This document shows, one piece after another, positions 5,940 to 29,896 of a DNA stretch of 49,917 nt. Below the pieces are notes generated by a model, which did not search any database, was not told where the DNA came from, and saw only the letters and a program-made list of their open reading frames with translations. The position numbers and the translations under genes are program-made. Numbering within the stretch: the first letter of the stretch is position 1; the number at the start of each line of letters is the position of its first letter. Source of the stretch: Tranquillimonas alkanivorans (GTDB taxonomy: Bacteria; Pseudomonadota; Alphaproteobacteria; Rhodobacterales; Rhodobacteraceae); the NCBI RefSeq assembly GCF_900115595.1, contig NZ_FOXA01000019.1, positions 1-49,917 of the forward strand, in the 5' to 3' direction.

Positions 5940-5989
5940 GTCCACCCTCACGACGAGGTCCGCCGTCGCGGATTGAAAAGGAGCAGCCC

Positions 5990-8811: not shown

Positions 8812-9767
<956 letters not shown>

Positions 9768-11742: not shown

Positions 11743-11745
11743 TCC

Positions 11746-15171: not shown

Positions 15172-15177
15172 TAAGCT

Positions 15178-15206: not shown

Positions 15207-15225
15207 GCCGCTCCGGAGCTATTCC

Positions 15226-16167
15226 ATGCCGCGTTACCTGCTGCGCCGCTTTGTCGGCATGATCGTTGTGATCTTTCTGGTCCTGACGATTGCCTTCGTG
15301 ATCGTGCGCTTGGCGCCTGGTGATCCTGCCGCTCTCATGCTGGGGCCCGACGCGACGCCGCAAGATGTGACGGAGTTGCGCGAGCGTCTCGGACTCGATC
15401 GGCCGATATTCGTGCAGTACGTCGCCTTCGTTGCCGGAGCGGTGCAGGGGAACCTCGGAGAGTCGCTCTTCTTCAATGCGCCCGTCACAGCGGTATTGGC
15501 CGCACGGGCGGAACCAACGATCTTCCTCGCCTTGTTTTCTCTGCTCTTCGCGCTGGTGATTGCGACACCGATCGGGATCTACGCCGCTTATCGCCGAGGA
15601 TCGACGCTCGACCAGACCTCGATCACGTCGGCCATGCTTGCGGCATCCGTCCCGAGCTTCCTGACCGGCCTGATATTCCAGCGGTATCTCGCGACCGAGC
15701 TGGGTTGGTTCCCCGTTTCCGGCTACGGCGGTCCCGATGCCGGATTCTTCGAGCGGATGCGCCACCTGGTTCTTCCGTCGATTGTCCTCGGCATCGTGAA
15801 CTCCGCATTGATCCTGAGATTCACCAGGGCCTCCATGCTCGACATTCTCGGGGAGGACTACGTCCGAACCGCCCGAGCAAAGGGGATGACCGAGCGGCGT
15901 GTGGTGCTGCGCCACGCCTTGAAGAACGCGGGCATCCCGATCATCACCGTCGTCGGGCTGACCTTTGCACTCCTTGTCTCGGGTGCGGTCGTCACCGAAC
16001 GTGTCTTCAACCTGCCCGGCCTCGGAAACCTCGTGGTCAACGCGGTGCTGCGGCGAGACTATCCGGTGATCCAGGGGACGCTGATCGTCGTGGCCGCGCT
16101 CTACGTTCTGGTGAACCTCGCGACAGACCTGCTTTACCTCGCCGTCGACAAGCGCGTGAAAGTCTGA
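15226..16167 (+). CDS. ABC importer permease (DppB type, module 2)
   Basis: A 313-residue permease beginning MPRYLLRRFVGMIVVIFLVLTIAF, with RLAPGDPAALMLGPDATP, a QGNLGESLFF periplasmic segment and the EAA loop MLDILGEDYVRTARAKGMTERRV followed by HALKNAG. Six predicted helices. It pairs with the next gene product to form the membrane channel. The 54-bp gap before it holds the stem-loop. Confidence 0.92.
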   Translation: MPRYLLRRFVGMIVVIFLVLTIAFVIVRLAPGDPAALMLGPDATPQDVTELRERLGLDRPIFVQYVAFVAGAVQGNLGESLFFNAPVTAVLAARAEPTIFLALFSLLFALVIATPIGIYAAYRRGSTLDQTSITSAMLAASVPSFLTGLIFQRYLATELGWFPVSGYGGPDAGFFERMRHLVLPSIVLGIVNSALILRFTRASMLDILGEDYVRTARAKGMTERRVVLRHALKNAGIPIITVVGLTFALLVSGAVVTERVFNLPGLGNLVVNAVLRRDYPVIQGTLIVVAALYVLVNLATDLLYLAVDKRVKV

Positions 16168-16169
16168 CC

Positions 16170-17027
16170 ATGGCACTCTCTTCCACCGCTCCCGAACCGC
16201 GGTTCCTGGAGTCGCTGTTCGCCCGGCGCTCCGTGCTGATTGCCTTGGTCGTCTTCGTCGGCATCGCTGGCCTGAGCTTCCTCGCGCCGCTCGTGGCGCC
16301 GCTGGATCCGGACGCCATGTCGGTGCGGGCGCGCCTGACGCCACCGGGCGCCGACTACCTGCTGGGCGCTGACGCGTTTGGACGCGACGTTTTCTCTCGG
16401 CTTCTCTTTGCCGGTCGGGTCTCCCTGACGATCGGTCTCGGCGTGGCGATCCTGTCGTCGGTCTTCGGCATCGCGATTGGTCTGCTCGCCGGCTTCTTCC
16501 GCCGACTGGACGCGCCTCTCTCACGGCTGGTCGACGCAATGATGGCGTTTCCCGACATTCTGCTGGCACTGTCGCTCGTCGCGATATTCGGCGGCACGAT
16601 GATCAACGTCATCCTCGCGCTGTCGATCGTCTACGCACCGCGCATCGCGCGGATCGTACGCGCCTCCACCCTCGTCATCCGCGAGCTGCCCTACGTCGAA
16701 GCCGCCCGCGCCTTGGGAACACGGACGCCGACCATCATGCTGACCCATGTCCTGCGCAACATCGTTTCTCCGATCCTCGTGCAGGCGACATTCATCTTCG
16801 CGTACGCAATGCTCGCGGAAGCCGGCCTGTCCTTCCTGGGCGTCGGCGTTGACCCGGAAACGCCCACATGGGGCACGATGGTCAACGAGGGGCGGCAGTA
16901 CATCGACCAGGCGATCTTCCTCATTCTCATCCCGGGCTTCGCGATCTCAATCTCGGTCCTTTCGCTGCAACTCGTCGGCGACGGACTGCGCGATGCACTT
17001 GATCCCAAACTCGCCAAGGAGACCTGA
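16170..17027 (+). CDS. ABC importer permease (DppC type, module 2)
   Basis: A 285-residue permease starting at ATG 16170, two bases after the previous stop. DppC marks: LLGADAFGRDVFSRLLF, MMAFPDILLALSLVAIFG, the EAA loop YVEAARALGTRTPTIMLTHVL, EAGLSFLGVGVDPETPTWG and the ending GDGLRDALDPKL. Unlike module 1 it is not fused to an ATPase. A single base separates it from the amidohydrolase start, so the enzyme is made with the transporter. Confidence 0.92.
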   Translation: MALSSTAPEPRFLESLFARRSVLIALVVFVGIAGLSFLAPLVAPLDPDAMSVRARLTPPGADYLLGADAFGRDVFSRLLFAGRVSLTIGLGVAILSSVFGIAIGLLAGFFRRLDAPLSRLVDAMMAFPDILLALSLVAIFGGTMINVILALSIVYAPRIARIVRASTLVIRELPYVEAARALGTRTPTIMLTHVLRNIVSPILVQATFIFAYAMLAEAGLSFLGVGVDPETPTWGTMVNEGRQYIDQAIFLILIPGFAISISVLSLQLVGDGLRDALDPKLAKET

Positions 17028-17028
17028 C

Positions 17029-18144
17029 GTGTCCCTGACCTTGAAAAACTTCCGCGCCGTCGGTTTCCGCGACACCTCCGCCACGGTGCACGTGAACGAC
17101 GAAGGCCGCGTCACGGCCGAAGCGCCCTCGGATGCGGGCGAAGTCGACTGCGGCGGCGGCTGGTTGTCGCCGGGCTGGTGCGATCTTCACGTACACGTCT
17201 GGCACGGTGGTTCCGATATCTCGGTGCGGCCGAGCCAGGCGGGTCGTCCCACCGGCGTTACTGCCATGGCCGATGCCGGATCGGCGGGGGAAGCCACGTT
17301 CCACGGCCTCCGCGAATACGTCATCGAACCGCAGTCAGAAACGATCCGCGCCTTCCTCAATATCGGCTCGATCGGCCTGGTCGCATGCAACCGGGTGCCG
17401 GAACTCATCGATCTGCGCTCGATCGACATAGATCGAACGCTGGAGGTGGTGGAAGCGAACCGGGACGTCATCTGCGGCATCAAGGTGCGGGCCTCGGGCG
17501 TCATCGTCGGCTCCTGGGGCATCACTCCGGCCAAAATCGCCAAGCGCGTGGCCGAGATCACCGATCTGCCCCTGATGGTTCACGTCGGCGAGCCGCCACC
17601 ACTGATCGATGAGGTTTTCGACATCCTCACCGAGGGCGACATCGTCACCCACTGCTTCAATGGCAAGAAAGCCGGATCGATCGCCGATACGGCCGCGCTG
17701 TGGGAGCAGGCAAAGGAGCTTGCCGCGCGAGGCGTGCGGATGGACGTCGGACACGGACAGGCCTCCTTCGATTTCGGAGTCGCCCGCCGCGCAATCGGCG
17801 ATGGCCTCAGGCCTTTCTCCGTCTCCACGGACCTGCACCTGCGCAACATCTCGGGACCAGTGCACGACATGGCGACGACCGTGTCAAAGCTCCTGGCGGT
17901 CGGGCTCCCGTTCGAGGATTGCGTGCGGGCCATTACCCAGGCGCCGCGGTCGGTCCTGGGGCTGGAGGCGGAACTGGGGCTCATGCCTGGAGAGCGCGCC
18001 GACTTCACCGTCTTTGATCTGGTCGACGGCGAAGTCGAGGTGGCTGATAGCCAAGGCAACCGGATGACGCTCGACCGACTTTTCGAGCCGCGCATGACGG
18101 TGCTGGGCAACGACGTGCAGGACGCGGCCCGGAGAGGCGCATGA
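17029..18144 (+). CDS. Amidohydrolase/deacetylase-family metallohydrolase
   Basis: A 371-residue amidohydrolase-superfamily enzyme of the kind grouped with predicted amidohydrolase COG3964 (EF_0837/AHA_3915 type). Metal-site residues visible are His54 and His56 in DLHVHVWHGG, Lys152 in GIKVRAS (candidate carbamylated Lys), His185 in MVHVGEPPP, His208 in THCFNG and Asp268 in STDLH. This is the full binuclear set. It should cleave an amide, cyclic amide or N-acyl bond in the cytoplasm. Start is GTG 17029, one base after the permease stop; the frame upstream of it lies within the permease gene. It overlaps the ATPase gene by four bases (ATGA). Substrate unknown; relatives are found with SelA-like PLP enzymes, as here. 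Confidence 0.8.
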   Translation: MSLTLKNFRAVGFRDTSATVHVNDEGRVTAEAPSDAGEVDCGGGWLSPGWCDLHVHVWHGGSDISVRPSQAGRPTGVTAMADAGSAGEATFHGLREYVIEPQSETIRAFLNIGSIGLVACNRVPELIDLRSIDIDRTLEVVEANRDVICGIKVRASGVIVGSWGITPAKIAKRVAEITDLPLMVHVGEPPPLIDEVFDILTEGDIVTHCFNGKKAGSIADTAALWEQAKELAARGVRMDVGHGQASFDFGVARRAIGDGLRPFSVSTDLHLRNISGPVHDMATTVSKLLAVGLPFEDCVRAITQAPRSVLGLEAELGLMPGERADFTVFDLVDGEVEVADSQGNRMTLDRLFEPRMTVLGNDVQDAARRGA

Positions 18145-19133
18145 GGGATCGGATCCTCGACGTCTCGAACCTGCGCGTGGCGTTCCGAAGCCGCGGCGGC
18201 GAGGTGACGGCTCTGCGGGACGTCAGCTTCACGCTCGAGCGCGGAAGAACGCTCGCTCTCGTCGGCGAAAGCGGGTCGGGAAAGTCTGTCACGTCTCTCG
18301 CTTTGATGGGCCTCTTGCCCCCCAACGGACGGGTTTCCGCAGGCCGCCTTCGGTACCGCGGCCGTGACGGGCGCGAGATGGATCTCTCGGCACTTGACGC
18401 CGCCGGCTATCGAAAGATCCGCGGAGCCGAGATCTCGATGATCTTCCAGGAACCGATGTCGTCTCTGAACCCGCTTTTCACCGTAGGGGATCAGGTGGGA
18501 GAAATGCTGTGGCTGCACCAGGATCTGGACGAGAAAGCCCGCCGAAAGCGCGTTGTCGAGATGCTCGACCTCGTGGAGATTCCCGCCGCCGCGTCCCGGG
18601 CGGATGCCTATCCGCATGAATTGTCCGGTGGCATGCGTCAGCGCGTGATGATCGCGATGGCGATGATCTGCAACCCGGCGCTGCTGATCGCCGACGAGCC
18701 CACCACAGCACTCGACGTGACGATCCAGGCGCAGATTCTCGACCTCATGCGCCGCCTTCAGAACGAGTTGGGGATGTCGATCCTGTTCATCACCCACGAC
18801 ATGGGTGTGGTCGCAGAAATGGCGGACGAGGTCGCGGTCATGTACGCAGGCGCGGTCGTCGAGCAGGCCACAGCCCGCGATCTTTTCGCCGACACGCGTC
18901 ACCCGTACACGGAAGGGCTGCTGCGCTCCATCCCGCAGCCCGGCCGGAGCAAGAGCAACCGCCTGGTCCCAATCCCGGGGACCGTTCCTCCCTTGCACGC
19001 TCTGCCGCAGGGCTGCGCCTTCGCACCACGATGTCCTTACGCAGAGGCCCGCTGCGAGGATCCGGTCGTGCTGACGGAGAAGGCAAGTGAACACTGGTCA
19101 GCCTGCATCCTTGATCGTCCGGTGCCCGCATGA
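18141..19133 (+). CDS. ABC importer ATPase (DppD type, module 2)
   Basis: A 330-residue ATPase with Walker [10 protein letters not shown]-loop [12 protein letters not shown], signature LSGGMRQR, Walker B LLIADEP, H-loop FITHDMG, and the C-terminal family domain with [14 protein letters not shown]. Overlaps both neighbours by four bases. Forms the nucleotide-binding pair with the next product. Confidence 0.92.
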
Positions 19134-20182
19134 CCGAACCTCTCATCAAGATTCAGAATCTGTCCAAGCGCTTCGACACGCCGTCGGGGCCGGTCTTCGC
19201 CCTTGACGACGTGAGCTTCGATATCCCCCGGGGCTCGATCACCGGCCTCGTCGGTGAGAGCGGCTCCGGAAAGACCACCCTCGGCCGGACGCTCCTGCGT
19301 CTCGTCCAACCGACCGCGGGCCAGACCATCTTCAACGGACAGGATCTGAACTCGCTGGATGCGCGCGCGATGCGCCTCATGCGCCGCCGCATGCAGATCA
19401 TCTTCCAAGACCCGGTCGCCTCCCTCAACCCGCGTTTACGCGTCGAAGCGGTGATCTCCGAAGGTCTCGCCGCACATGGCATCGGCTCCAGGTCGGAGCG
19501 GCGCGATCGCGTGGCGTCCCTGCTGGAGGAGGTCGGATTGCAGCCGGACCACATGCGCCGCTTCCCGCACGAGTTTTCCGGGGGCCAGCGCCAGCGGATC
19601 GGCATCGCGCGAGCGCTCGCCCTGGAACCGGAGTTCATCGTCGCGGACGAAAGCGTGTCCGCGCTCGACGTCTCGGTGCAGGCACAGGTTCTCAACCTGC
19701 TTCTCGACCTCCGCGAGCGCCGTAACCTGACCATGCTGTTCATCGCGCACGACCTCTCCGTCGTGGAGTACCTGTGCGACCAGATCGCGGTGATGTATCT
19801 GGGCCGGATCATGGAGGTCGGTCCGACCGAAGCCGTCAGCTCCTCTCCGCGGCACCCCTACACGCGCGCCCTCAACTCGGCGATCCCGCTGCCGCAGCCC
19901 GGTGCCACGGGAAAACGCGAGCTGCTGCAGGGTGACATTCCCAGTCCGCTCGATCCGCCGTCGGGCTGTGTATTCCGCACCCGCTGCCCCATGGCGCGCG
20001 ACCTGTGCGCCACGACTCCTCCCCCGCCCGAAGTGGTCGGGAACGATCACATAAGCTATTGCAAGAGAATAGAGGCCCTGGATGAAAGACAACCGCTCCG
20101 AGAGCAGTCCCGAGGCGCGCCTTCGGGCGCAAGGGATCCATTTGCCGAAGAGCGCGCCCGAGCCGATCGGAGCGTTCCGTAA
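19130..20182 (+). CDS. ABC importer ATPase (DppF type, module 2)
   Basis: A 350-residue ATPase with Walker A GESGSGKTT, Q-loop FQDPVASLNPRLRV, signature FSGGQRQR, Walker B FIVADES (Ser in place of the usual Pro after the catalytic Glu), H-loop FIAHDLS and the C-terminal domain with CVFRTRCPMARDLC. After CKRIEAL, where family members usually end, it carries about 33 extra residues. These are encoded in another frame over the start of the ridA gene, giving a 101-base overlap. Confidence 0.9.
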   Translation: MTEPLIKIQNLSKRFDTPSGPVFALDDVSFDIPRGSITGLVGESGSGKTTLGRTLLRLVQPTAGQTIFNGQDLNSLDARAMRLMRRRMQIIFQDPVASLNPRLRVEAVISEGLAAHGIGSRSERRDRVASLLEEVGLQPDHMRRFPHEFSGGQRQRIGIARALALEPEFIVADESVSALDVSVQAQVLNLLLDLRERRNLTMLFIAHDLSVVEYLCDQIAVMYLGRIMEVGPTEAVSSSPRHPYTRALNSAIPLPQPGATGKRELLQGDIPSPLDPPSGCVFRTRCPMARDLCATTPPPPEVVGNDHISYCKRIEALDERQPLREQSRGAPSGARDPFAEERARADRSVP

Positions 20183-20576
20183 TGTCCGGCGATCGGGCAA
20201 CCTGCTTTTCGTCTCCGGTCAGGGGCCGGTCCAGTCGGACGGGACGCTCCTGCGCGGGAAGGTCGGAGACGACGTCACGGCCGAAGAGGCACGGGAGCAT
20301 TCGGAACTTGTGGCCGTGAACATCCTGACGGCGCTCCGCAGCCACTGCGGCTCTCTCGACGAGGTCGGTGGAGCTGTTAAGCTGCTCGGCCTGGTGAACG
20401 CGACGCCGGATTTCGAGCGTCACCCGTTCGTGATCGACGGCGCATCGGAACTGCTCCGCAAGGTGTTCGGTGAGAACGGCGTGCATTCTCGAAGTGCTTT
20501 TGGTGTGGGCTCTCTACCAAACCGGATCACGGTCGAGATCGAAGCGATCTTCGAGCTCGCCGATCCTGTAGCCTAA
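20082..20576 (+). CDS. ridA: RidA/YjgF-family imine deaminase
   Basis: A 164-residue RidA-superfamily protein with LPKSAPEPIGAFRNVRRSGNLLFVSGQGP, a long middle region and HSRSAFGVGSLPNRITVEIEAIFEL. The Arg in HSRSAFGV aligns with the catalytic Arg105 of RidA, and VEIEA closes the fold. RidA hydrolyses reactive enamine/imine intermediates released by PLP-dependent lyases to 2-keto acids. The start ATG at 20082 lies 101 bases inside the ATPase gene. The N-terminal 20 residues are longer than in classical RidA. Its partner in this operon is plausibly the SelA-like PLP enzyme encoded at 21428. Confidence 0.85.
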   Translation: MKDNRSESSPEARLRAQGIHLPKSAPEPIGAFRNVRRSGNLLFVSGQGPVQSDGTLLRGKVGDDVTAEEAREHSELVAVNILTALRSHCGSLDEVGGAVKLLGLVNATPDFERHPFVIDGASELLRKVFGENGVHSRSAFGVGSLPNRITVEIEAIFELADPVA

Positions 20577-20580
20577 AAAC

Positions 20581-21360
20581 TCAGAGGCCTTTGTGGTGCC
20601 CCATCGCCCGCTCTACCGCTGCCGCCGCGGAACGAACCTGTTCGGCAAGCCAGTCAAATTTGTCGGAGACGCGGTGCTTGGGCATCACGACGGAGAGCGT
20701 CATCATGCAGGCGCCGGCCTCGTCTCGCACCGGGGCGGCGATGCAGGCAACCGACTCCTCGGAACTGTCGATCTGGACGGCCAGCCCGTTCAGGTAGTCC
20801 TCCCTCGACTGCCGGGACAGCGTCTCGGGATCCGTTTCCGCAAGGCCGGTGCGGGACGGGCGAGCACTGGAGCGAAACGCTTCCAGTCGCTCGCTTTCAC
20901 TGAGGTGCCCAAGGAGCAGACGACCCGATGCGGTCCAATTCAGGGGCACCCGGGTGCCGACATCCGACGTCACCCGGAAATGGCCCTCTCCTTCGGCCAT
21001 TCCCATCACCACCATCATGCCCTCGTCGCGCGTGCAGATCTGGATCATCTCGCCAGTTCGACGGCTCAGGGCATGCATCTCGCGCTCCGCCTCGGCGAAC
21101 ATGTCGATGCGGCCTCGGTACGCGAGGCCGTAGCGCATGAGGCGCGGACCCAGCCAGATCCTGCCTTCATCGACGCGCGAAAGCATCGACCGCTCAACGA
21201 GTTCATCTATGAGCCTGTAGATAGTCGAGGCCGGAGCACCCGCCGCCTTCGCCAATTCGTAGGCGCTCATCGGCACTTGCCGCTCGGTGAGGAGGTCCAT
21301 CACCTGCAGGCTGCGGTCGATGCCACTGGTTCGCGTGCGCGTCGGCTTGATCTGGCTCAT
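20581..21360 (-). CDS. IclR-family transcriptional regulator
   Basis: A 259-residue IclR protein. The winged helix covers GIDRSLQVMDLLTERQVPMSAYELAKAAGAPASTIYRLIDEL. The GAF-like ligand domain follows, with VGTRVPLNWTASGRLLL, a final SVACIAAPVRDEAGACMMTLSVV and FDWLAEQVRSAAAAVERAMG. It converges on ridA with only four bases between the stops and is divergent from the PLP-enzyme gene. It probably controls that promoter, and perhaps the whole importer operon, in response to a pathway metabolite. Confidence 0.9.
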   Translation of the reverse strand: MSQIKPTRTRTSGIDRSLQVMDLLTERQVPMSAYELAKAAGAPASTIYRLIDELVERSMLSRVDEGRIWLGPRLMRYGLAYRGRIDMFAEAEREMHALSRRTGEMIQICTRDEGMMVVMGMAEGEGHFRVTSDVGTRVPLNWTASGRLLLGHLSESERLEAFRSSARPSRTGLAETDPETLSRQSREDYLNGLAVQIDSSEESVACIAAPVRDEAGACMMTLSVVMPKHRVSDKFDWLAEQVRSAAAAVERAMGHHKGL

Positions 21361-21427
21361 CTGCCCTCCCCTGCTCCACGGGGATTACCTAATAATGGAA
21401 GTTAGAACAACTCGGAAAGGTAACGGA
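21361..21427. promoter_or_regulatory. Divergent IclR / PLP-enzyme promoter region
   Basis: A 67-bp gap that must hold both promoters. An AT-richer patch contains CTAA (21389-21392) and TTAG (21402-21405) as an inverted pair, nested in TTACC (21385-21389) and GGTAA (21419-21423). GGAAAGG just before ATG 21428 is the ribosome-binding site. The dyads are candidate IclR operators only. Confidence 0.35.
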
Positions 21428-22648
21428 ATGCCAATGACGTCGTCTCCGGATTGGAGCTGGCACGACGAGATGCAGGTTGGTCGCCTGATCAACGTGTCGG
21501 GTACGATGACCGCCCTCGGGGGCTCCATCACGGCTCCGGACGTCGCGGAGGCGACATCATCCGCGATGAGCCGCTTCGTTCGCATCCACGAGCTCCAGGC
21601 GCGCGCAAGTGATGTGATCAGCGAGTTGACGGGAGCTGAAGCGGGATTCATCACCGCCTCGGCAAGCGCCGGAATTACCTTGGCGGTTGCAGCCTGTCTT
21701 ACGGGTCTTGATCCCGCGCGCGCCGAGGCTCTGCCCAGAGAGCCGGGGGCGAAGGACCAGGTGGCGGTCCAGCTCGGGCACCTTTGCGGATACGGCGCTC
21801 CGGTTTCTTTGGCGGTGGAACTCACCGGCGCTTCCGTTCGCCCCGTGGGCCAGTCTACCCTGGCGATGGATCACCAGTTCGCACATGCTCTCGACGAAAG
21901 GGCCGCCGCCGCGCTCTACGTCGTGTCCCATCACGTTGTGCATTACGGTCAGATCCCGTTCGAGCGGTTCGTCGAGATCGCCCACGACAAGGGCGTCCCG
22001 GTCATTGTGGACGCTGCTTCGGAATATGACCTCCAGGGTTTCGTCGAAGCAGGCGCGGACCTGGTCATCTACTCGGCCCACAAGTTCATGGGCGGCCCCA
22101 CCGCCGGAATAGTCGCCGGTCGCCGCGATCTGGTCAGGGCGGCTTACCTTCAGAACATTGGCATCGGGCGCGGCATGAAGGTCGGCAAGGAGAGCATCTG
22201 CGGTGCAATCGCCGCGATGAAACTTTGGATGCAGCGAGACCATGTAGCCGTCCGAGCCCGTGAGAGCGAGGCGCTGGAGATGTGGAAGAAGGCCGTTGGA
22301 ACCTTGCCCGGTGTGCACGCACGCCGTGTACCCGATCCGACCGGAAATCCGCTCGAACGCCTGCAGGTGGAGATCGACGCGGACGTCGCCGGAGCCGATG
22401 CGGCCAGCTTTGCGCGTGCCCTTGGTCGCCGGAACCCGGCGATCATTGTGCGCGATCATGAGGTGGAACTCGGGTACTTCCAGCTTGACCCGTGTAATCT
22501 TGCGCCCGGTCAGGCACCGATGGTGGCCGACGCGCTGGTCGAAGAGCTGAAACGCGGGGCAGAACTTCCAGATGAAGCCGGGTCTGCCGGGGCGGCAGTG
22601 CGTAATGGCGGCGTCCGGGCTTATCTGGATTGGCTAAAGCCTCAATGA
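21428..22648 (+). CDS. SelA/DgaE-like PLP-dependent enzyme (ammonia-lyase or related)
   Basis: A 406-residue fold-type I PLP enzyme of the selenocysteine-synthase-related group (SelA-like; DgaE, D-glucosaminate-6-phosphate ammonia-lyase, is the best-known catabolic relative). Features: LINVSGTMTALGGS near the N terminus, GAEAGFITASASAGI (PLP phosphate cup), VIVDAASEYDL (Asp195 to the pyridine nitrogen) and SAHKFMGGPTAG with Lys219 as the Schiff-base lysine. It is not tRNA-related SelA, which is larger. DgaE-type enzymes eliminate water and release an enamine; RidA next door would hydrolyse such a product. Substrate unknown. Start ATG 21428 has a good upstream GGAAAGG. Confidence 0.78.
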   Translation: MPMTSSPDWSWHDEMQVGRLINVSGTMTALGGSITAPDVAEATSSAMSRFVRIHELQARASDVISELTGAEAGFITASASAGITLAVAACLTGLDPARAEALPREPGAKDQVAVQLGHLCGYGAPVSLAVELTGASVRPVGQSTLAMDHQFAHALDERAAAALYVVSHHVVHYGQIPFERFVEIAHDKGVPVIVDAASEYDLQGFVEAGADLVIYSAHKFMGGPTAGIVAGRRDLVRAAYLQNIGIGRGMKVGKESICGAIAAMKLWMQRDHVAVRARESEALEMWKKAVGTLPGVHARRVPDPTGNPLERLQVEIDADVAGADAASFARALGRRNPAIIVRDHEVELGYFQLDPCNLAPGQAPMVADALVEELKRGAELPDEAGSAGAAVRNGGVRAYLDWLKPQ

Positions 22649-23176: not shown

Positions 23177-23698
23177 TTACGAAGCTCTTGTACCGCCGGC
23201 GGACTCTTCCGCAGACGGGGGTAAATCCGCGATGAGATCGTTTAGCGTCTCGACCAGCACGCGCTTTCTCTCCACGCCGATCACAGCGTCCAGGTGGGCG
23301 ATGTGCTCGCGCGCCTTGATTTCCATGCGGCGGTGCAATTTGGCCCCTTCATGGGTGAGGTAGCTCGCGTAACTGCGGCGGTCGTCCTCCAGACGGACTC
23401 GGCGGATCAGACCCTCATCTTCCATTTGGCGAAGCGCCTTGGTCACGCTCGACTTGTCGCGCCGGGCTTCGCGGCCGATCTCGACCTGCGTGATTCCGGG
23501 GTTCAGGGCGACAAGAGTCAGGACGGTGAAGAAACCGGGCTTCAGCGTGTCGGAGCCGAGGAGGCGGGCGAAGTCCTCGAATGCCTCGTTGTAGGCGGCG
23601 CGCAGGAGCATGCCCACGAAGTTCTCGAGCAGACCGAGTTCGATCTTCCGCCGTTCAGGAACCGCCCGCGTCATGTCCATGGTGTCATCCGGCTGCAT
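23177..23698 (-). CDS. MarR-family transcriptional regulator
   Basis: A 173-residue winged-helix regulator: GFFTVLTLVALNPGITQVEIGREARRDKSSVTKALRQMEDEGLIRRVRLEDDRRSYASYLTHEGAKL is the classic MarR DNA-binding domain with its wing Arg residues. Flanking helices form the dimer. Its ATG at 23698 lies inside the end of the oxidase gene (14-base overlap), so it is the third gene of the minus-strand operon. It probably controls the divergent promoters at 26024-26121; ligands of MarR proteins are often aromatic acids, which fits the enzymes here. Confidence 0.88.
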   Translation of the reverse strand: MQPDDTMDMTRAVPERRKIELGLLENFVGMLLRAAYNEAFEDFARLLGSDTLKPGFFTVLTLVALNPGITQVEIGREARRDKSSVTKALRQMEDEGLIRRVRLEDDRRSYASYLTHEGAKLHRRMEIKAREHIAHLDAVIGVERKRVLVETLNDLIADLPPSAEESAGGTRAS

Positions 23699-24860
23699 GT
23701 AGATCCTGTTCCCTCTGTTCCGCCTTGTGGGTGGAGCGTCGCGGATCGAGGCGTTGACGCCCCGTCTGCGCCATGGCCACTTCGAGTTCGGCGGCGAGCA
23801 AGGTCATGAGGTCCGCGGGGCCGTCCGTGCCGAGTGCGCCGAGAGCGTAGAGGAAGGGACGTCCGAGGAAAACGAAATCGGCGCCTGCGTCGAGCGCCTT
23901 CAGGACGTCCTCGCCGGAACGCACGCCTCCGTCCACCGCCACCGGGAAGCCGGGGGGAACCGCTGCCCGGACCTCGCGCAAGGCGACCAGAGTTGCGGGG
24001 GCCGCATTGAATTGCCGCCCGCCGTGGTTCGAAACCTGCACGGCGTCCACCCCTTGCGCTGCAGCACGCACCGCGTCCTCCGGGTGCATCACGCCCTTCA
24101 AGACGAGCGTACCACGCCATCGCTCCCGGATGCGACCGAGCAGGTCCCAGTCGAGACGGCCGGAGCTTTGTCCGGCCATGAGTTCGGCCAATGAGCGCGC
24201 TCCGGTGCCATCTCCCGCGTATCGCGCGAGGTTCGCGAACCGTGGCGCGCCGTGACGCAGCGTGGCGAGGCTCCAGGCTGGGTGGGTGGCGAGGTCCGAC
24301 AGCAGGCGCGGAGTGAAGCGGAGGGGGAGGGCGAAGCCGTTGCGGAGGTCGCGGAGCCGCTTGCCGGGCCGAGGAACGTCTGCCGTCACGACGAGCGTCT
24401 CATAGCCCGCGGCCTCTGCGCGCGCAATCAGGTCGTCCGTGATCTCGGGTGACTTGCCGACATAGAGCTGGAAAAACGCGCTGTCCGGCGCCGCCGCCTT
24501 CAGGTCTTCGAGCGTGGTGGTGGCGGGAGTGGAGGCCGTGAAGGGCGCACCGGCCCATTGGGCCGCGCGTGCCATTGCCGTGTCAGCGCCGGGCCAGGCG
24601 AGCCCCGGCAGGCCGATAGGGGCGATGCCGAAGGGAACCGACCACTCCCGCCCCAGAAAGGCGCGGCGCGTGTTGGCCGGAGCCGCCGAATTCACCAGGA
24701 CGCGCGGGACGAGGCAGGCGTCGCGAAAGGCATCGCCATTGCGCGCAAGCCCGTCCTCCGTTCCCGCGCCGCCATCCACGAAGTCAAAGGCGAACTTTGG
24801 GATCCGGGCGCGCGCCTGCCGCCGGAGGTCGTCGACCGATATGGCCGCCCGAGGGGACAT
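23685..24860 (-). CDS. FMN-dependent alpha-hydroxyacid oxidase/dehydrogenase
   Basis: A 391-residue member of the glycolate oxidase / L-lactate / (S)-mandelate dehydrogenase family. Conserved FMN-barrel marks: PKFAFDFVDGGAGTE, FGIAPIGLPGLAWPGAD, FQLYVGKSPE, LVVTADVPRPGKRLRDLRNGF, LVLKGVMHPEDA (Lys to FMN), VQVSNHGGRQ (catalytic His-Gly-Gly-Arg) and VAVDGGVRSGEDVLKALDAGADFVFLGRPFLYAL. It oxidises an (S)-2-hydroxyacid to the 2-ketoacid. The start ATG 24860 overlaps the TGA of the racemase-like gene by one base. With a mandelate-racemase-like partner, an aryl- or alkyl-2-hydroxyacid substrate is likely (inference). Confidence 0.9.
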   Translation of the reverse strand: MSPRAAISVDDLRRQARARIPKFAFDFVDGGAGTEDGLARNGDAFRDACLVPRVLVNSAAPANTRRAFLGREWSVPFGIAPIGLPGLAWPGADTAMARAAQWAGAPFTASTPATTTLEDLKAAAPDSAFFQLYVGKSPEITDDLIARAEAAGYETLVVTADVPRPGKRLRDLRNGFALPLRFTPRLLSDLATHPAWSLATLRHGAPRFANLARYAGDGTGARSLAELMAGQSSGRLDWDLLGRIRERWRGTLVLKGVMHPEDAVRAAAQGVDAVQVSNHGGRQFNAAPATLVALREVRAAVPPGFPVAVDGGVRSGEDVLKALDAGADFVFLGRPFLYALGALGTDGPADLMTLLAAELEVAMAQTGRQRLDPRRSTHKAEQREQDLHAAG

Positions 24861-26023
24861 CAGCCCTTGCCCCGGCCATGCGAGGTCGGGCGGGCGGCGA
24901 AGTCGCGCAGAGCGTCGGGATCGGCGTCGAAGCCGAGGCCCGGCGTGTTCGGCAGGCGCAGCGTCTCGCCGTCGCGTTCTGGCAGGTCCTTGAAGAGGGC
25001 GCGGCACATTTCCACCGAGATCAGGTGCCATTCGACCAGACCCCCGTGTGCAAGTCCGGCATGCAGGTGCATGTTGTGGAAGGGGAACGCCCCGCCGTTC
25101 GCCAGTTCGACGTTGCGCGCCTCGGCGAGCGCGGCGGCTTTCATGCCGACCGTGAACCCCCCGCAGATGGTGACATTCGGCTGGATCACGTCCACTGCGC
25201 CTGACCCAGTGAGCTGATCGAAGCGCCAGAGCTGTCCCTCGTTCTGGCCGGCGGCGATTCTGGTCCCCGAGATCTCGCGCATCTCGCGCAGGTGGCGCGG
25301 ATCATTGTCGCGCAGCGGCTCCTCGAAGAAGGCCACCTCGTACGGTCGCAGCCGATCGGCCAACCAGCGGGCAGAGCCGGGATCGAGGCTGCAGTTGGCG
25401 TCGATGAAGATCTGCGCGTCGTCGCCGGCGGCTTCCCTCACCGTCCGGACGCGCTCGACATCCTCGCGCAGGATCGCCCGAACATCCGCGCCGTCCATCC
25501 GCTTGCGAAGCGCGTGGTGCCCGACCACCATCTTCAGGCGAGACACACCCTCGCGTCGCAGGTAGCGGGCGCTCTCGGCCAGTTGGTCGCGATCGAAGGA
25601 GCCGAAGCCGAAGGTGACGTAAAGCGGAACCTCTTCCCGGGCCCCGCCCAGGAGCTTCCAGCAGGGCTGGCCCGTGACCTTGCCGAGGATGTCCCACAAC
25701 GCGAGATCGATGGCCGAGGCGACGTGGCTGGCGTAGCCCGACTGGCCGCGCGGCGTCAGAAGCCAATAGAGCCGTTCCGCGACACCTTCGCGATCGAGCG
25801 CGCTCAAACCCTCCAGATTCGGAGAGGCCAGGTCGCGCACGATTGCGGCGACGGCCTCCTCGTCTGTGATCGCCGTGAAGCCGTATCCGGCAGGCCCGTC
25901 CTTCGTCAGCACCTCAACGACCACGCACGACAGCGATGCCTGCGCCTCGACCGAGCCGAGCGGCAGCGTCGTCGGAATGTAGGCCGGGTATGCTCGAATA
26001 CCCTGTATAGAAAGGTTCATCAT
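24860..26023 (-). CDS. Enolase-superfamily enzyme, mandelate racemase/muconate lactonizing group
   Basis: A 387-residue protein with the MR/MLE capping domain and TIM barrel. Metal ligands appear as Asp208 (FIDANCSLD), Glu234 (FFEEPL) and Glu262 (AAGQNEG). A lysine in SRLKMVVGHH (Lys164) sits where the N-terminal catalytic base belongs, and histidines in NMHLHAGLAHGG lie on the opposite face. The usual K-x-K is K-M-V. It would abstract the alpha-proton of a carboxylate, giving racemisation, dehydration or cycloisomerisation. It is the first gene of the minus-strand operon with the oxidase and MarR regulator. Two ATGs in tandem start it; the first is used here. Confidence 0.85.
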   Translation of the reverse strand: MMNLSIQGIRAYPAYIPTTLPLGSVEAQASLSCVVVEVLTKDGPAGYGFTAITDEEAVAAIVRDLASPNLEGLSALDREGVAERLYWLLTPRGQSGYASHVASAIDLALWDILGKVTGQPCWKLLGGAREEVPLYVTFGFGSFDRDQLAESARYLRREGVSRLKMVVGHHALRKRMDGADVRAILREDVERVRTVREAAGDDAQIFIDANCSLDPGSARWLADRLRPYEVAFFEEPLRDNDPRHLREMREISGTRIAAGQNEGQLWRFDQLTGSGAVDVIQPNVTICGGFTVGMKAAALAEARNVELANGGAFPFHNMHLHAGLAHGGLVEWHLISVEMCRALFKDLPERDGETLRLPNTPGLGFDADPDALRDFAARPTSHGRGKG

Positions 26024-26064
26024 ATGGCTCCTGTCCGCCTCCGAGATAGGCGCGATCGATACGG

Positions 26065-26096
26065 TTGACAGTGAAATGGTTTCTCAACAAACTAAT
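26065..26096 (+). promoter_or_regulatory. Likely tctC promoter with overlapping regulator dyad
   Basis: A perfect -35 element TTGACA (26065-26070) is followed at 17-18 bp by a weak AT-rich -10 (CAAACT/AAACTA at 26088-26094). The spacer contains GTTTCTCAACAAAC (26079-26092), a partial dyad with GTTT/AAAC arms of the size MarR proteins bind. Binding here would block RNA polymerase. It lies 30 bp before ATG 26122. Confidence 0.5.
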
Positions 26097-26121
26097 TTTG
26101 TCCATATTGGGAGGAGAAAAA

Positions 26122-27075
26122 ATGAAGAAAGTCGTAACGGCAGCGCTCGCTATCCCGCTGATGACCGGCGCCGTGCTGGCGCAGGAGTATCCCGAGCGTC
26201 CAATTTCCATGGTCGTGGGCTTTTCGCCCGGAGGCGGCATGGACACGCTGGCGCGGCTCGTGGGGGATAGGGCGTCCCAGGAGTTGGGCCAGCAGATCGC
26301 GGTCGAAAACCGTCCCGGCGCGGGCGGCACGATTGCCGCGGCGCACGTGGCCGAGGCCGAACCCGATGGGTATACGCTGTATCTCGGCGAGACGACGACT
26401 CTCATGGGGCCTGTGGTGTTCGACAACGTCGGCTACGACCCGATCGAGAGCTTTGAGCCAGTCGCGCACCTCGCCAATGCGCCGCTCGCGCTGGTCGCCA
26501 ACCCTGACGTGCCGGTCGAGAACCTCGAAGACTTCCTCAGCCTCGTGTCCGAAAAGCCGGGCGAATACTTCTACGCCACCTCCGGCGTCGCCACGGTGCA
26601 CCACCTCGCGGGCGAGATCCTCGAAGAGATGGCCGGGCTCGACATGGTCGATGTACCGTTCCAGGGCGGTTCGCCGTCGGTCACCGCCGTGGTTTCGGGC
26701 GAGGTTCCGTTCGGCTTCGTCAGCCTCAACGCCGCCACCTCGCAGGCCGAGGGTGGAAACCTGAAGATCCTCGGCGTCACCACTGCGGATCGGGTGCCGG
26801 ATTTCCCGGATATCCCCGCCATCAGCGAGGCCGTCGAAGGGTTCTCGGCGGCGCCGAGCCAGTTTGTTCTCGCTCCGGCCGGGACTCCGGCGGACGTGGT
26901 GCAGACCCTCTCCGAGGCCTTCGGCACCGCGATGAGCGACGAAGAGCTCTTGTCGTCGCTGACGGCACGCGGGTTCCTGCCGGACTATCAAGACGCAGAT
27001 ACTTTTGCGTCCGATGTCCCGGATATGGTCTCGACATGGAGCGACGCCGCCAGTGTCGTAAGCAACGGCAACTGA
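26122..27075 (+). CDS. tctC: Tripartite tricarboxylate transporter binding protein (TctC/Bug family)
   Basis: A 317-residue periplasmic binding protein. The signal peptide is MKKVVTAALAIPLMTGAVLAQ. Bug-family marks: YPERPISMVVGFSPGGGMDTLAR, VENRPGAGGTIAAAHVA and EPDGYTLYLGETTT, the two loops that hold a carboxylate, then FQGGSPSVTAVVSGEV. It captures a carboxylate for the TctAB permease. A strong GGGAGGAGA site precedes ATG 26122. First gene of the plus-strand operon. Confidence 0.92.
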   Translation: MKKVVTAALAIPLMTGAVLAQEYPERPISMVVGFSPGGGMDTLARLVGDRASQELGQQIAVENRPGAGGTIAAAHVAEAEPDGYTLYLGETTTLMGPVVFDNVGYDPIESFEPVAHLANAPLALVANPDVPVENLEDFLSLVSEKPGEYFYATSGVATVHHLAGEILEEMAGLDMVDVPFQGGSPSVTAVVSGEVPFGFVSLNAATSQAEGGNLKILGVTTADRVPDFPDIPAISEAVEGFSAAPSQFVLAPAGTPADVVQTLSEAFGTAMSDEELLSSLTARGFLPDYQDADTFASDVPDMVSTWSDAASVVSNGN

Positions 27076-27094
27076 CCAGAGACAAGTCCGCTTC

Positions 27095-27120
27095 TGTGCG
27101 CTCCTACGAAGGGGCGCACA
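27095..27120 (+). terminator. Stem-loop after tctC
   Basis: TGTGCGCTCC (27095-27104) and GGGGCGCACA (27111-27120) form a 10-bp stem with one G-U pair and a 6-base loop. It starts 20 bases after the tctC stop and 23 bases before the next gene. It occupies the same position as the stem-loops at 5919 and 15178. Confidence 0.6.
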
Positions 27121-27142
27121 GGGTCCCTTATAAGGAGACATC

Positions 27143-27871
27143 ATGCAGCCCGTGATCGGAATGATCGTGCCGCCCGCCGCCGGAAAGGTGCCGCCCGAGG
27201 CGTACGGTCTTTTTCCCGAAGGCATCACCTTCGCCGCCAGGGGGCTCGCGCTTCGCGAGCTTTCGCTCAATGGCTACAGCGAGGTAATTGACAGGGTGGC
27301 CGACCTCGTACGGGATCTGCGCGAGGTGGAAGGCGCCGATGCCGTGTCGCTGATGGGCACCTCGCTCAGCTTTTTCAAAGGCAACGCTTTCAACGACGAA
27401 CTTGTGCAGGTCATGGAGCGGTCAGGAGGCATTCCGGCCACCACCATGAGCAACGCGATCCGCGATGCGCTTCGTACGCTCGGGGCGCATCGCATCGCCG
27501 TCGGGACCGCCTACACCGACGAGGTGAATGAGCGGCTCCGGGTCTACCTCGAGACCGCGGGCTTCGAAATCGTCTCTCTGCAGGGCCTGGGGCTGACGGA
27601 GGTGCCGGATGTCCACGCGGTCACTCAGGAAGAGGTCGTCGAATTGGGGCAGAGGGCGGCGGAAAGCGCCGTGATATCCCCGGACGCTGTGCTGGTCTCC
27701 TGCGGCGGGCTCATTGCAACCGACCTCGCGCCGCAACTCGAAGCGCGTATCGGCCTGCCGGTCGTCGCCAGCGCGACGGCTGGCGTATGGGCGTCGGTGC
27801 GACTGCTTGGCCGGGACGGCGCCAGTCCGAAGCTCGGTATGCTGGCTGAGGCGTCCCGGTCACGAGGCTGA
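27143..27871 (+). CDS. Arylmalonate decarboxylase-like protein (Asp/Glu racemase superfamily)
   Basis: A 242-residue protein very like Bordetella arylmalonate decarboxylase as I recall it. It opens IGMIVPPAAGKVPPEAYGL, has VSLMGTSLSFFKGNAFN (Gly72-Thr73-Ser74, dioxyanion pocket), TAYTDEVNERL (Tyr124) and LVSCGGLIATD (Cys187, the proton donor equivalent to Cys188). Racemases of this superfamily have a second Cys where Gly72 stands, so a one-Cys decarboxylase is the better call; maleate isomerase-like proteins are the alternative. The enzyme needs no cofactor and decarboxylates 2-substituted malonates to chiral acids. Being placed between tctC and tctB, it likely acts on the imported acid. Confidence 0.8.
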   Translation: MQPVIGMIVPPAAGKVPPEAYGLFPEGITFAARGLALRELSLNGYSEVIDRVADLVRDLREVEGADAVSLMGTSLSFFKGNAFNDELVQVMERSGGIPATTMSNAIRDALRTLGAHRIAVGTAYTDEVNERLRVYLETAGFEIVSLQGLGLTEVPDVHAVTQEEVVELGQRAAESAVISPDAVLVSCGGLIATDLAPQLEARIGLPVVASATAGVWASVRLLGRDGASPKLGMLAEASRSRG

Positions 27872-27923
27872 CCTGGACGCTCGACTTTCACGTGACCACG
27901 AACCGCAGCAGGTAACCTGAACC

Positions 27924-28391
27924 ATGCGCACCACCTCCACGCGCCGCAGTGTGAACCTTTCCGATCTTGTGTCGGGACTTTTTGTCGTACTGCTCTCGGG
28001 CGGGTTTGCGCTTGAGGCATTCGGCCACGGCATCGGCACATTCGCCCGCATGGGAGCAGGGTTCTATCCCTTCGCTCTCGGCGCGATCTGTGCCGCCTTG
28101 GGCCTTGGGATCGCCGTGCGCGCCGTCATCGCGCCGACCGCAGACGAGGCCAGCGTCCGGTGGCGCGGGCTCCTCTTCATCTGCGCCGCCTTCGCCACCT
28201 TCGGTCTGCTGATAGAGCCGGCGGGTCTGGTCGCCGCCATCGTGGGGAGCACGGTCATCGGAGCGATGGCCGATCCGGAGTCGCGGCTGTGGGAAAGCCT
28301 GCTGCTCGGGTTTGGTCTCTCGGCCGGCATCTGGCTGATCTTCGTCGTTCTCTTGGGACTTTCGATCCCCGTCCTGCCGTTGGTGCTTTGA
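27924..28391 (+). CDS. tctB: Tripartite tricarboxylate transporter small membrane subunit (TctB)
   Basis: A 155-residue protein with four hydrophobic segments: LVSGLFVVLLSGGFALEAF, GFYPFALGAICAALGLGIAVR, GLLFICAAFATFGLLIEPAG and a final LLLGFGLSAGIWLIFVVLLGL. This is the length and topology of TctB. Its stop overlaps the tctA start by one base (TGATG). Confidence 0.85.
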   Translation: MRTTSTRRSVNLSDLVSGLFVVLLSGGFALEAFGHGIGTFARMGAGFYPFALGAICAALGLGIAVRAVIAPTADEASVRWRGLLFICAAFATFGLLIEPAGLVAAIVGSTVIGAMADPESRLWESLLLGFGLSAGIWLIFVVLLGLSIPVLPLVL

Positions 28392-29896
28392 TGGACATCC
28401 TTACCGCGCTCCTGGGTGGCTTCGCCGAGGCGATCACGCTCACCAACCTTATGTACTGTTTCCTGGGCGTGGCGCTGGGGACGTTCATCGGCGTGCTGCC
28501 CGGGCTCGGCGCGATGATCGGAATCTCGCTGCTGCTGCCGGTGACCTATTACCTCGAGCCGCATTCCGCGATCATCATGCTGGCAGGGATCTACTATGGC
28601 GGGGAGTTCGGCGGCTCCATCGCCTCGATCCTGATCAATGTGCCCGGCACGCCGTCGAGCGCGGTGACATGCATCGACGGCAATCAGATGACGAAAAAGG
28701 GACGCGCGGCCGTCGCCCTATTCGTCACAGCCATCGCGTCCTTCATCGGCGGCTCCATCGGCATCGTGCTGATGACACTGTTCTCTCCGCTGATCGCGGA
28801 CTTCGCGCTTAGCTTCAAATCCGAGGATTACTTCGCCGTCATGCTGTTGGGTCTCGTCGCCTCGGCCTCAGTCGCCCGGGGGTCGGCCCTGAAGGGACTG
28901 GTTGCGGTCCTGCTGGGAGTGCTCGTCGGGACCGTCGGCACCGACGTTAGCACTGGCGTGCAACGGTTCACTCTGGGTTTCCCCGAATTGGTAACTGGCG
29001 TGAACCTCGTGATCCTGGCGATGGGGATCTTCGGTTTGGCCGAGGTGGTTTCCTCGGCGGGCAACACCCTTCCGCCCAGTGGGGACCAGCATGTTCGGAT
29101 GCGCGACATGCTGCCCACGCGGGACGAGGCGCGGCGCTCCACCGGGCCGGTGGCGCGGGGCTCGGCTCTCGGCTCGCTCCTGGGGGCTCTGCCGGGGGCG
29201 GGGCCGACTCTGTCGGCGTTTCTCGCGTATTCGTTCGAAAAGCGGCTGTCCCGCGAGCCGGAGAAGTTCGGCACCGGGATCGTCGAGGGTGTCGCCGCGC
29301 CGGAATCCGCGAACAACTCGGCGGCGCAGACCGCCTTCATTCCGACCCTTACGCTCGGCATTCCTGGGACCGCGACGATGGCTCTGATCCTCGGTGCGCT
29401 GATGATCCACGGCATCCCGCCGGGGCCGAAGCTCATGACAGAGCACGCCGACCTGTTCTGGACACTCGTCGCGAGCTTCTGGATCGGCAATTTGTTCCTG
29501 CTGATCCTGAACATCCCGCTCGTGACGATCTGGGTGCGGCTCCTGAAAATCCCTTACCGGCTGCTCTTCCCCTCGATCATCTGTTTCATCTGCGTGGGGG
29601 TCTACAGCGTCAGCCTCAATCCTTTCGACATCTTCCTCGTCATCGCCATCGGCCTTCTGGGCTACGGCATGCGTGTGGCCGGCTACGAAGCTGCGCCGTT
29701 TCTGATGGGCTTCATCCTTGGCCCGTTGATGGAAGAATACCTTCGCCGGGCCCTCCTCCTCGGTCGCGGCGATGTGACGGTCCTGGTGCAGAGTCCGGTC
29801 GCCGCCGTCTGCCTCGCTATCACTTCGCTGATGCTGCTTTGGCCGCTGGTGGGCGAACATGTACGTCGCCTACGCGTAGGCTTTCCGAGGCCCTGA
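28391..29896 (+). CDS. tctA: Tripartite tricarboxylate transporter large permease (TctA)
   Basis: A 501-residue polytopic permease. TctA marks: LGTFIGVLPGLGAMIGISLLLP (first conserved PGLG motif), IYYGGEFGGSIASILINVPGTPSS, then the second PG motif in LGSLLGALPGAGPTLSAF, EGVAAPESANNSA and FIPTLTLGIPGTATMALILGALMIHG. It works with TctB and TctC as a sodium- or proton-driven carboxylate importer. I chose ATG 28391. Last gene of the operon. Confidence 0.93.
   Translation: MDILTALLGGFAEAITLTNLMYCFLGVALGTFIGVLPGLGAMIGISLLLPVTYYLEPHSAIIMLAGIYYGGEFGGSIASILINVPGTPSSAVTCIDGNQMTKKGRAAVALFVTAIASFIGGSIGIVLMTLFSPLIADFALSFKSEDYFAVMLLGLVASASVARGSALKGLVAVLLGVLVGTVGTDVSTGVQRFTLGFPELVTGVNLVILAMGIFGLAEVVSSAGNTLPPSGDQHVRMRDMLPTRDEARRSTGPVARGSALGSLLGALPGAGPTLSAFLAYSFEKRLSREPEKFGTGIVEGVAAPESANNSAAQTAFIPTLTLGIPGTATMALILGALMIHGIPPGPKLMTEHADLFWTLVASFWIGNLFLLILNIPLVTIWVRLLKIPYRLLFPSIICFICVGVYSVSLNPFDIFLVIAIGLLGYGMRVAGYEAAPFLMGFILGPLMEEYLRRALLLGRGDVTVLVQSPVAAVCLAITSLMLLWPLVGEHVRRLRVGFPRP

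What the first reader, a model, noticed from the sequence alone, without database searches (positions are those of the whole stretch)
23177..29896. Candidate new pathway: TTT importer + arylmalonate decarboxylase + racemase-like enzyme + alpha-hydroxyacid oxidase
Seen: a minus-strand operon (MR/MLE enzyme, FMN alpha-hydroxyacid oxidase, MarR) divergent from tctC, an AMDase-like gene, tctB and tctA. The AMDase-like protein keeps the single catalytic Cys187 and Gly72-Thr-Ser pocket of true decarboxylases. Known: AMDase turns 2-substituted malonates into chiral acids but its natural substrate is unclear. Inferred: a 2-hydroxy- or aryl-malonate is imported and decarboxylated, the product is racemised and its S form oxidised to a 2-ketoacid. 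This context could reveal the natural role of AMDase.
Basis: partly seen in the sequence, partly recalled or inferred. Interest (0 to 1): 0.78.

Follow-up and report, generated by a model that had tools for sequence, protein, structure and literature searches.

The report
Decarboxylase operon resembling the mandelate pathway
A bacterium carries a small set of genes that probably imports an unknown two-acid compound, removes one carbon with an enzyme whose natural job is a puzzle, and burns the product; relatives carry likely next enzymes too, which makes the puzzle testable.

Summary
In detail: all seven genes are present, in two tight divergent operons, and the AMDase is a true family member with one cysteine. 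AMDase + TTT transporter + MR/MLE enzyme is not new; it was published in 2016. What I did not find in print is the oxidase branch. In Ponticoccus alexandrii the same set continues with an aldehyde dehydrogenase and a thiamine-diphosphate enzyme whose best solved relatives are benzoylformate decarboxylases; the window's own genome holds orthologues of that pair elsewhere. The set then resembles the mandelate pathway, fed by AMDase. A GTTGAC box lies in 14 of 14 compared divergent spacers. The oxidase lies within 5 kb of AMDase in 14 of 74 scored loci, with four changes on the AMDase tree. AMDase-free versions of the cluster exist, so AMDase looks like a variable input to a wider module. The natural substrate stays unknown; 2-hydroxy-2-aryl- or alkenylmalonates fit best. 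New variant of a known kind.

The parts
23177..23698 (-). MarR-family regulator
   Evidence: Pfam MarR 9.2e-13; overlaps the oxidase stop; recurs in 12 of 87 AMDase loci
23685..24860 (-). FMN-dependent alpha-hydroxyacid oxidase/dehydrogenase family (HAO); raw ORF opens at 25031, likely ATG at 24860
   Evidence: FMN_dh 7.3e-118; PDB: fused L-lactate oxidase 7f22 in four pieces (1.2e-78) and, in one full-length piece, (S)-mandelate dehydrogenase 6bfg (4e-75); NCBIfam best L-lactate dehydrogenase PRK11197, 273.5 bits, below its cut-off 376; NHGGRQ, LKG and QLY blocks present; start overlaps the MR/MLE stop
24860..26023 (-). MR/MLE-fold enzyme of an AMDase- and TTT-linked family with an atypical active site
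   Evidence: MR_MLE_N/C; model pLDDT 91.2; Foldseek top match 5xd9 (3,6-anhydro-L-galactonate cycloisomerase), mandelate racemase 4hnc at rank 43 with TM 0.83; residues
26064..26093 (.). putative promoter/operator between the two operons: GTTGAC 26064-26069, weak palindrome 26078-26093
   Evidence: GTTGAC in 14 of 14 compared divergent spacers, 0.52 of 14 expected on mononucleotide shuffling; the palindrome pairs 5 of 8 positions here and was not tested against chance; the repeat finder found no inverted repeat of 7 or more in 26000-26140; MarR binding is inferred
26122..27075 (+). tctC, solute-binding protein of the TTT transporter (raw ORF opens at 26065)
   Evidence: Pfam TctC 6.2e-59; start
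27143..27871 (+). arylmalonate decarboxylase (AMDase)
   Evidence: NF052327 296 bits, cut-off 225; PF17645; PDB 3dg9 7.8e-54; single Cys187
27924..28391 (+). tctB, small membrane subunit
   Evidence: Pfam TctB 2.4e-17
28391..29896 (+). tctA, large membrane subunit (raw ORF opens at 28160)
   Evidence: Pfam TctA 5e-157; start overlaps the tctB stop

Best explanation
A catabolic unit of two divergent operons, probably MarR-controlled. Step 1 (family shown, substrate inferred): TctCBA imports a 2-substituted malonate. Step 2 (family shown): AMDase removes one carboxylate and protonates the enediolate from the Cys187 side, giving the R acid. Step 3 (inferred): the product is a 2-hydroxy acid, so the substrate is a 2-hydroxy-2-aryl- or 2-hydroxy-2-alkenylmalonate. 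The MR/MLE-fold enzyme makes it, or its mirror form, available to the oxidase; its reaction is open, because the proton-transfer residues of mandelate racemase are absent. Step 4 (family shown, substrate inferred): the FMN enzyme oxidises the S-2-hydroxy acid to a 2-oxo acid. Step 5 (inferred from Ponticoccus and from a gene pair elsewhere in this genome): a ThDP 2-oxoacid decarboxylase and an aldehyde dehydrogenase finish the route, as in the mandelate pathway. That the genes form one catabolic unit I hold at about 0.85; the full 2-hydroxymalonate route at the confidence given (lowered from 0.42 when rechecking showed that the oxidase is not clearly nearer to mandelate than to lactate enzymes).
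For: Same gene set with AMDase followed by aldehyde dehydrogenase and ThDP enzyme in P. alexandrii and in G002, a near-identical copy (L042). The ThDP enzyme's three best PDB matches are benzoylformate decarboxylases, at only 2.5e-25 and up. The own genome has a 72% identical ThDP orthologue at C54:85035-86720 beside the aldehyde dehydrogenase orthologue (791 bits). The ThDP family (E at most 1e-200) is in 24 of 290 family genomes and in 3 of the 4 of them that hold the HAO-bearing cluster (p 0.002; 0.017 without G002). HAO lies within 5 kb of AMDase in 14 of 74 scored loci, four changes on the AMDase tree; FMN_dh density is 123 matches in 61 genomes of the window's family (my sum), so about 0.4 of 74 would be expected (betaproteobacterial density not measured). 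Characterised AMDases accept alpha-hydroxymalonates. GTTGAC box in 14 of 14 spacers.
Against: MR/MLE lacks the mandelate racemase bases. HAO is absent within 10 kb in 39 of the 54 loci with MR/MLE, including close relatives of the window cluster (L050, L051, L053-L055). The oxidase's top PDB score is a fused L-lactate oxidase and its best NCBIfam model an L-lactate dehydrogenase below cut-off. The ThDP enzyme's only NCBIfam model over its cut-off is an unspecific one; benzoylformate decarboxylase reaches 146 of 493 bits. G199 has the HAO cluster but no ThDP hit at 1e-200. Module L136 lacks AMDase, and in L062 the HAO/MR-MLE/TTT set stands beside, not inside, an AMDase cluster. Eleven other AMDase loci pair it with an IlvD-type dehydratase instead, which the hydroxyacid route does not explain. 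Known isolates were enriched on phenylmalonate, which yields no hydroxy acid, and phenylmalonate is reported as a better substrate than its 2-hydroxy form.
Confidence: 0.4

Rival explanations
1. The MR/MLE enzyme is a dehydratase of a hydroxylated acid, as many of its kin are, and AMDase acts before or after it; the oxidase serves a side branch. The substrate would be a polyhydroxy or alkenyl malonate rather than an aryl-hydroxymalonate.
For: The five best NCBIfam models are acid-sugar dehydratases, all far below cut-off. In AMDase loci MR/MLE (54) and an IlvD/EDD dehydratase (11) never meet, 0 of 87 (hypergeometric 7e-6, not corrected for kinship), as if one replaces the other. AMDase-free TTT + atypical MR/MLE also in a haloarchaeon.
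Against: I identified no residue set of a known dehydratase; 10 of the 11 IlvD loci also carry a TRAP DctM gene and a HIBADH-like gene, so the swap may reflect another pathway.
Confidence: 0.28
2. One reading: classical mandelate-racemase-type 1,1-proton transfer between R and S 2-hydroxy acids by the MR/MLE enzyme.
For: Would link an R-selective AMDase to an S-selective oxidase; K164, N197 and E317 are conserved.
Against: K166, D270, H297 and E247 replaced in 55 of 55 scored; canonical outgroups keep KxK.
Confidence: 0.13
3. AMDase is a passenger that widens the substrate range of an older TTT + MR/MLE + oxidase module and has no fixed natural substrate.
For: Module without AMDase in L136; different position of AMDase in the tct operon (tctC-amd-tctB-tctA versus tctCBA-amd); rare, patchy gene: over cut-off in 9 of 295 family genomes, 2 of 385 class genomes, 1 of 3 in the genus, own genome included each time.
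Against: 87 of 87 AMDases keep Gly74 and Cys188, which argues for a maintained function; but 80 of them were fetched with patterns that contain these motifs, so this is partly circular.
Confidence: 0.14

Closest known systems
AMDase clusters TTT-IV/TTT-V of Alphaproteobacteria (Maimanakos et al. 2016, PMC4996985; abstract, sections 12, 13, 16 and searched passages read)
   Same: AMDase beside complete TTT genes; an MR/MLE gene in 61% of their sequences; Gly74/Cys188 motif
   Different: The main text has no occurrence of oxidase, MarR, benzoylformate, mandelate dehydrogenase or lactate dehydrogenase; no residue analysis of the MR/MLE enzyme in the sections read; figures and supplement were not available to me
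Mandelate pathway of Pseudomonas (racemase, (S)-mandelate dehydrogenase, benzoylformate decarboxylase, benzaldehyde dehydrogenase; recalled)
   Same: Same four enzyme superfamilies in the Ponticoccus cluster
   Different: Fed by AMDase and TTT; MR/MLE lacks the racemase bases; last two genes in trans in the window's genome
Bordetella bronchiseptica AMDase (PDB 3dg9)
   Same: Full-length homologue, single-Cys active site, oxyanion residues
   Different: Val instead of Met159; M159V was selected as an improved engineered variant of the Bordetella enzyme; natural substrate of both unknown

Membership tests
Arylmalonate decarboxylase (EC 4.1.1.76) | Curated family model | tested here: met
   NF052327 296 bits over 225; PF17645 292 over 25.9
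Arylmalonate decarboxylase (EC 4.1.1.76) | Gly74 and Cys188, one catalytic Cys only | tested here: met
   G72 and C187, the only Cys in the protein
Arylmalonate decarboxylase (EC 4.1.1.76) | Oxyanion hole and pocket residues and motifs of PMC4996985 Table 4 | tested here: met
   P14, P15, T75, S76, Y126, G189, L40, Y48, V156 identical; V43 is Leu, M159 is Val; LMGTSLSF identical, ILLSCGGL reads VLVSCGGL
Arylmalonate decarboxylase (EC 4.1.1.76) | R-selective decarboxylation of arylmalonates | not testable with these tools
   needs assay
Mandelate racemase (EC 5.1.2.2) | MR/MLE fold | tested here: met
   Pfam; model TM 0.83 to 4hnc
Mandelate racemase (EC 5.1.2.2) | Bases K166 and H297-D270 (roles recalled) | tested here: not met
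   Val or Thr; no His; Asn in 55 of 55
Mandelate racemase (EC 5.1.2.2) | Metal ligands D195, E221, E247 (recalled) | tested here: not met
   D and E kept; E247 is Gln. Gln is also seen in 3msy/3no1/4h83, which keep KxK, so Gln alone is not decisive
FMN alpha-hydroxyacid oxidase family | FMN_dh domain with Tyr129, Arg164, Lys230, His254, Arg257 (glycolate oxidase numbering, recalled) | tested here: met
   Pfam; residues read by eye from the alignment. The tyrosine recalled as Tyr24 is Phe
FMN alpha-hydroxyacid oxidase family | S-enantiomer and substrate specificity | not testable with these tools
   needs assay; lactate and mandelate enzymes score alike
Tripartite tricarboxylate transporter | TctA, TctB and TctC together | tested here: met
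Mandelate pathway | 2-oxoacid decarboxylase and aldehyde dehydrogenase present | tested here: inconclusive
   Not in the cluster; orthologues of the Ponticoccus pair in trans; function untested

The most novel reading that the evidence does not exclude
The MR/MLE-fold protein belongs to a TTT-linked enolase-superfamily family that has lost the proton-abstracting bases and kept only the metal- and carboxylate-holding residues. It forms an enolate without taking a proton, for instance by losing CO2 from a malonate or by another C-C cleavage. AMDase itself is a racemase fold that kept one of two Cys, so two unrelated racemase folds would have turned to base-free enolate chemistry in one pathway, whose natural substrate class is 2-hydroxymalonates.
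Probability: 0.09. Interest if true: 0.85.

Novelty: new variant of a known kind. Interest (0 to 1): 0.6.

Why it matters
AMDase is a well-studied biocatalyst, yet its natural function is stated to be unknown (PMC4996985 section 16; PMC4424294 whole text; PMC4517146 passage), and its strict R-selectivity is called puzzling (PMC4996985 section 16). A cluster that adds a hydroxyacid-oxidase-family enzyme, a benzoylformate-decarboxylase-like enzyme and an aldehyde dehydrogenase gives a specific, testable substrate class. It also shows that the neighbour called a racemase is probably not one in the textbook sense.

Tried and rejected
A single-sequence scan of genome contigs found no relatives; a second scan with alignment A1 gave 190, of which the best 80 were kept, so the sample leans to window-like loci, and its search patterns include the SCGGL and MGTSLSF motifs. 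VIA-align was not available. The repeat finder found no inverted repeat in the divergent spacer; the GTTGAC box was seen only by comparing relatives, and the palindrome after it (4 to 7 of 8 pairs) was not tested against chance. Two single-linkage gene clusters merged unrelated ORFs, so I replaced them by per-family searches. L096 (oxidase 8.1 kb away, beside another tctC) and L062 (8.6 kb) were not counted among the 14 HAO loci; 13 of 87 loci were not scored there because their flanks were too short. L111 and L126 hold only fragments of the MR/MLE gene under my score limit of 300 and are not among the 55 proteins (54 loci); the fragments show the same residues where they can be read. L042 and L048 are near-identical and count twice in the 87. 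L045 lies below the AMDase cut-off (206.6 bits) but was kept among the 87. The AMDase tree is a 'quick' tree, and it warns of long branches joined in the Thalassospira/Ponticoccus group. Considered and rejected: a two-Cys racemase for the AMDase gene (one Cys only); an assembly artefact (the arrangement recurs in named genomes).
Full report
OBSERVATION. MR/MLE, oxidase and MarR form a minus-strand operon with overlapping ends; tctC, AMDase, tctB and tctA run the other way, with tctB and tctA overlapping by one base. The AMDase passes NCBI's equivalog cut-off (296 over 225 bits), aligns nearly full length with the Bordetella enzyme of known structure, and has one Cys. By the criteria of Maimanakos et al. 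(PMC4996985, section 12) it has identical or similar residues; Leu replaces V43 and Val replaces M159.

RECURRENCE (own genome included in each count). The window's genome has one AMDase. Over the cut-off are 9 of 295 genomes of the family, 2 of 385 of the class and 1 of 3 of the genus. The window's MR/MLE family (profile A3, E at most 1e-100) is in 7 of 290 family genomes; the six strong ones (628 bits or more) all also have an AMDase over the cut-off, and the seventh, G074 at 377 bits, has none. I then examined 87 AMDase loci: the window, the best 80 of 190 from genome contigs and six that I added (L037, L041, L042, L045, L047, L048). Within 10 kb they hold TctC in 57, MR/MLE in 54, oxidase in 16, TctA in 15, MarR in 12, IlvD-type dehydratase in 11, and the ThDP enzyme in 2 (many flanks are shorter than 10 kb). 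MR/MLE and IlvD never occur together (0 of 87); 10 of the 11 IlvD loci also carry a TRAP DctM gene and a 3-hydroxyisobutyrate-dehydrogenase-like gene, but DctM also occurs in 7 MR/MLE loci.

THE OXIDASE BRANCH. In Ponticoccus alexandrii plasmid p-SCP4 the order is MarR-oxidase-MR/MLE, divergent from tctC-tctB-tctA-AMDase-aldehyde dehydrogenase-ThDP enzyme. The ThDP enzyme's three best PDB matches are benzoylformate decarboxylases (2.5e-25); the only NCBIfam model over its cut-off is an unspecific 'thiamine pyrophosphate-requiring protein'. The window oxidase's best PDB score is a fused L-lactate oxidase matched in four pieces; the next, in one piece, is (S)-mandelate dehydrogenase; its best NCBIfam model is an L-lactate dehydrogenase, below cut-off. 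Together this resembles the enzyme set of the mandelate pathway (recalled). In the window's genome the last pair is not in the cluster, but a 72% identical ThDP enzyme lies at C54:85035-86720 beside the orthologous aldehyde dehydrogenase. Such ThDP genes are in 24 of 290 family genomes, and in 3 of the 4 of these genomes with the oxidase-bearing cluster (G000, G002, G263; not G199). Of ten stretches around ThDP genes in other genomes, 5 hold an aldehyde dehydrogenase (550 bits or more to that of Ponticoccus) and 6 a DctM gene, so the pair has wider use. On an AMDase tree of 87 rows the oxidase needs four changes (14 with, 60 without, 13 not scored), which suggests repeated recruitment, though the count cannot tell gain from loss.

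AGAINST A SIMPLE STORY. G263 has the complete module MarR-oxidase-MR/MLE / tctC-tctB-tctA-aldehyde dehydrogenase-ThDP without an AMDase (L136); its AMDase is on another contig in a TRAP/IlvD locus (L041). In Nitratireductor pacificus (L062) an oxidase (cut by the locus edge)-MR/MLE/tctC-tctA set lies next to a separate AMDase locus with its own MR/MLE gene. The close relatives L050, L051 and L053-L055 lack the oxidase. So AMDase looks like a variable input, and the oxidase a variable output, of a core of TTT plus MR/MLE.

THE 'RACEMASE'. They replace K166 by Val or Thr, E247 by Gln and D270 by Asn, and have no His at 297. Canonical members picked up on the way keep KxK (L137 second gene, L155, L102), so the pattern is not an alignment artefact. 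The atypical set also occurs in three members without AMDase in the stretch held: G074, Burkholderia arboris and the archaeon Halostagnicola larsenii, the last beside tctCBA. The predicted structure is confident (pLDDT 91.2) and is an ordinary enolase-superfamily fold; its top Foldseek match is 3,6-anhydro-L-galactonate cycloisomerase. Thus R/S interconversion by the mandelate racemase mechanism is not supported, and the reaction of this enzyme is the main unknown.

REGULATION. In the 14 divergent MR/MLE-tctC spacers that I compared (L042/L048 and L110/L117 are near-copies), GTTGAC occurs in 14, against 0.52 of 14 expected on shuffling. A weak palindrome follows it in some, best in L062 and L101 (7 of 8 pairs), 5 of 8 in the window; it was not tested against chance. 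A MarR site in the tct promoter is the natural reading; binding is inferred.

CHEMISTRY. Characterised AMDases decarboxylate alpha-hydroxy-alpha-phenyl-, alkenyl- and several heteroarylmalonates to alpha-hydroxy acids with high enantiomeric excess (PMC4517146, passages); phenylmalonate without the hydroxy group is called the better substrate there. Isolates were enriched on phenylmalonate (PMC4424294, whole text; PMC4996985 section 12), so the hydroxymalonate reading rests on gene context, not on growth data.

PRIOR ART. AMDase + TTT + MR/MLE is published (PMC4996985 sections 13 and 16) and reviewed (PMC5812351, passages). In the main text of PMC4996985 the words oxidase, MarR, benzoylformate, mandelate dehydrogenase and lactate dehydrogenase do not occur. 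A library search for 'arylmalonate decarboxylase' with 'mandelate racemase' and 'gene cluster' gave 0 papers; with 'hydroxy acid' 0 (PMC4517146 writes the enzyme's name otherwise, so this search misses papers); 27 papers hold the name (listing only). The library holds open-licence papers only, so the oxidase link may be in print elsewhere.

VERDICT. Real and recurrent; partly known; the oxidase/ThDP extension, the shared GTTGAC box and the atypical MR/MLE active site are what this work adds.

Noticed in passing
L119, L122 (Bryobacterales/Bryobacteraceae MAGs): AMDases with Gly74/Cys188 in MAGs titled as Acidobacteria-type organisms, while the 2016 survey found them only in Alpha-, Beta- and Gammaproteobacteria. 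L125, titled Bordetella parapertussis MAG, pairs with L122 on the tree and may be mislabelled.
   Followed up: partly
L137 (G074:C1) 9252-11784: Tandem pair of MR/MLE genes, one with the atypical active site and one with KxK, in a stretch with tctC and tctA but no AMDase hit.
   Followed up: partly
L162 (Halostagnicola larsenii plasmid) 2793-7095: A haloarchaeon carries tctC-tctB-tctA followed by an atypical MR/MLE gene, without an AMDase hit in the stretch held.
   Followed up: partly
L149 (own genome, C54) 3485-12417: The ThDP/aldehyde dehydrogenase pair lies divergently next to an IlvD-type dehydratase and a sugar-ABC-like ATPase and permease.
   Followed up: partly
window 5990-22648: ABC-transporter-like genes (near 6-10 and 15-20 kb), a weak Rid-family match, an IclR regulator and a DgaE-like PLP enzyme below its cut-off lie left of the finding; probably separate units.
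   Followed up: no
window 27611-27613 (codon 157): Natural Val at the position of Bordetella Met159, where the engineered M159V variant was reported as improved.
   Followed up: no
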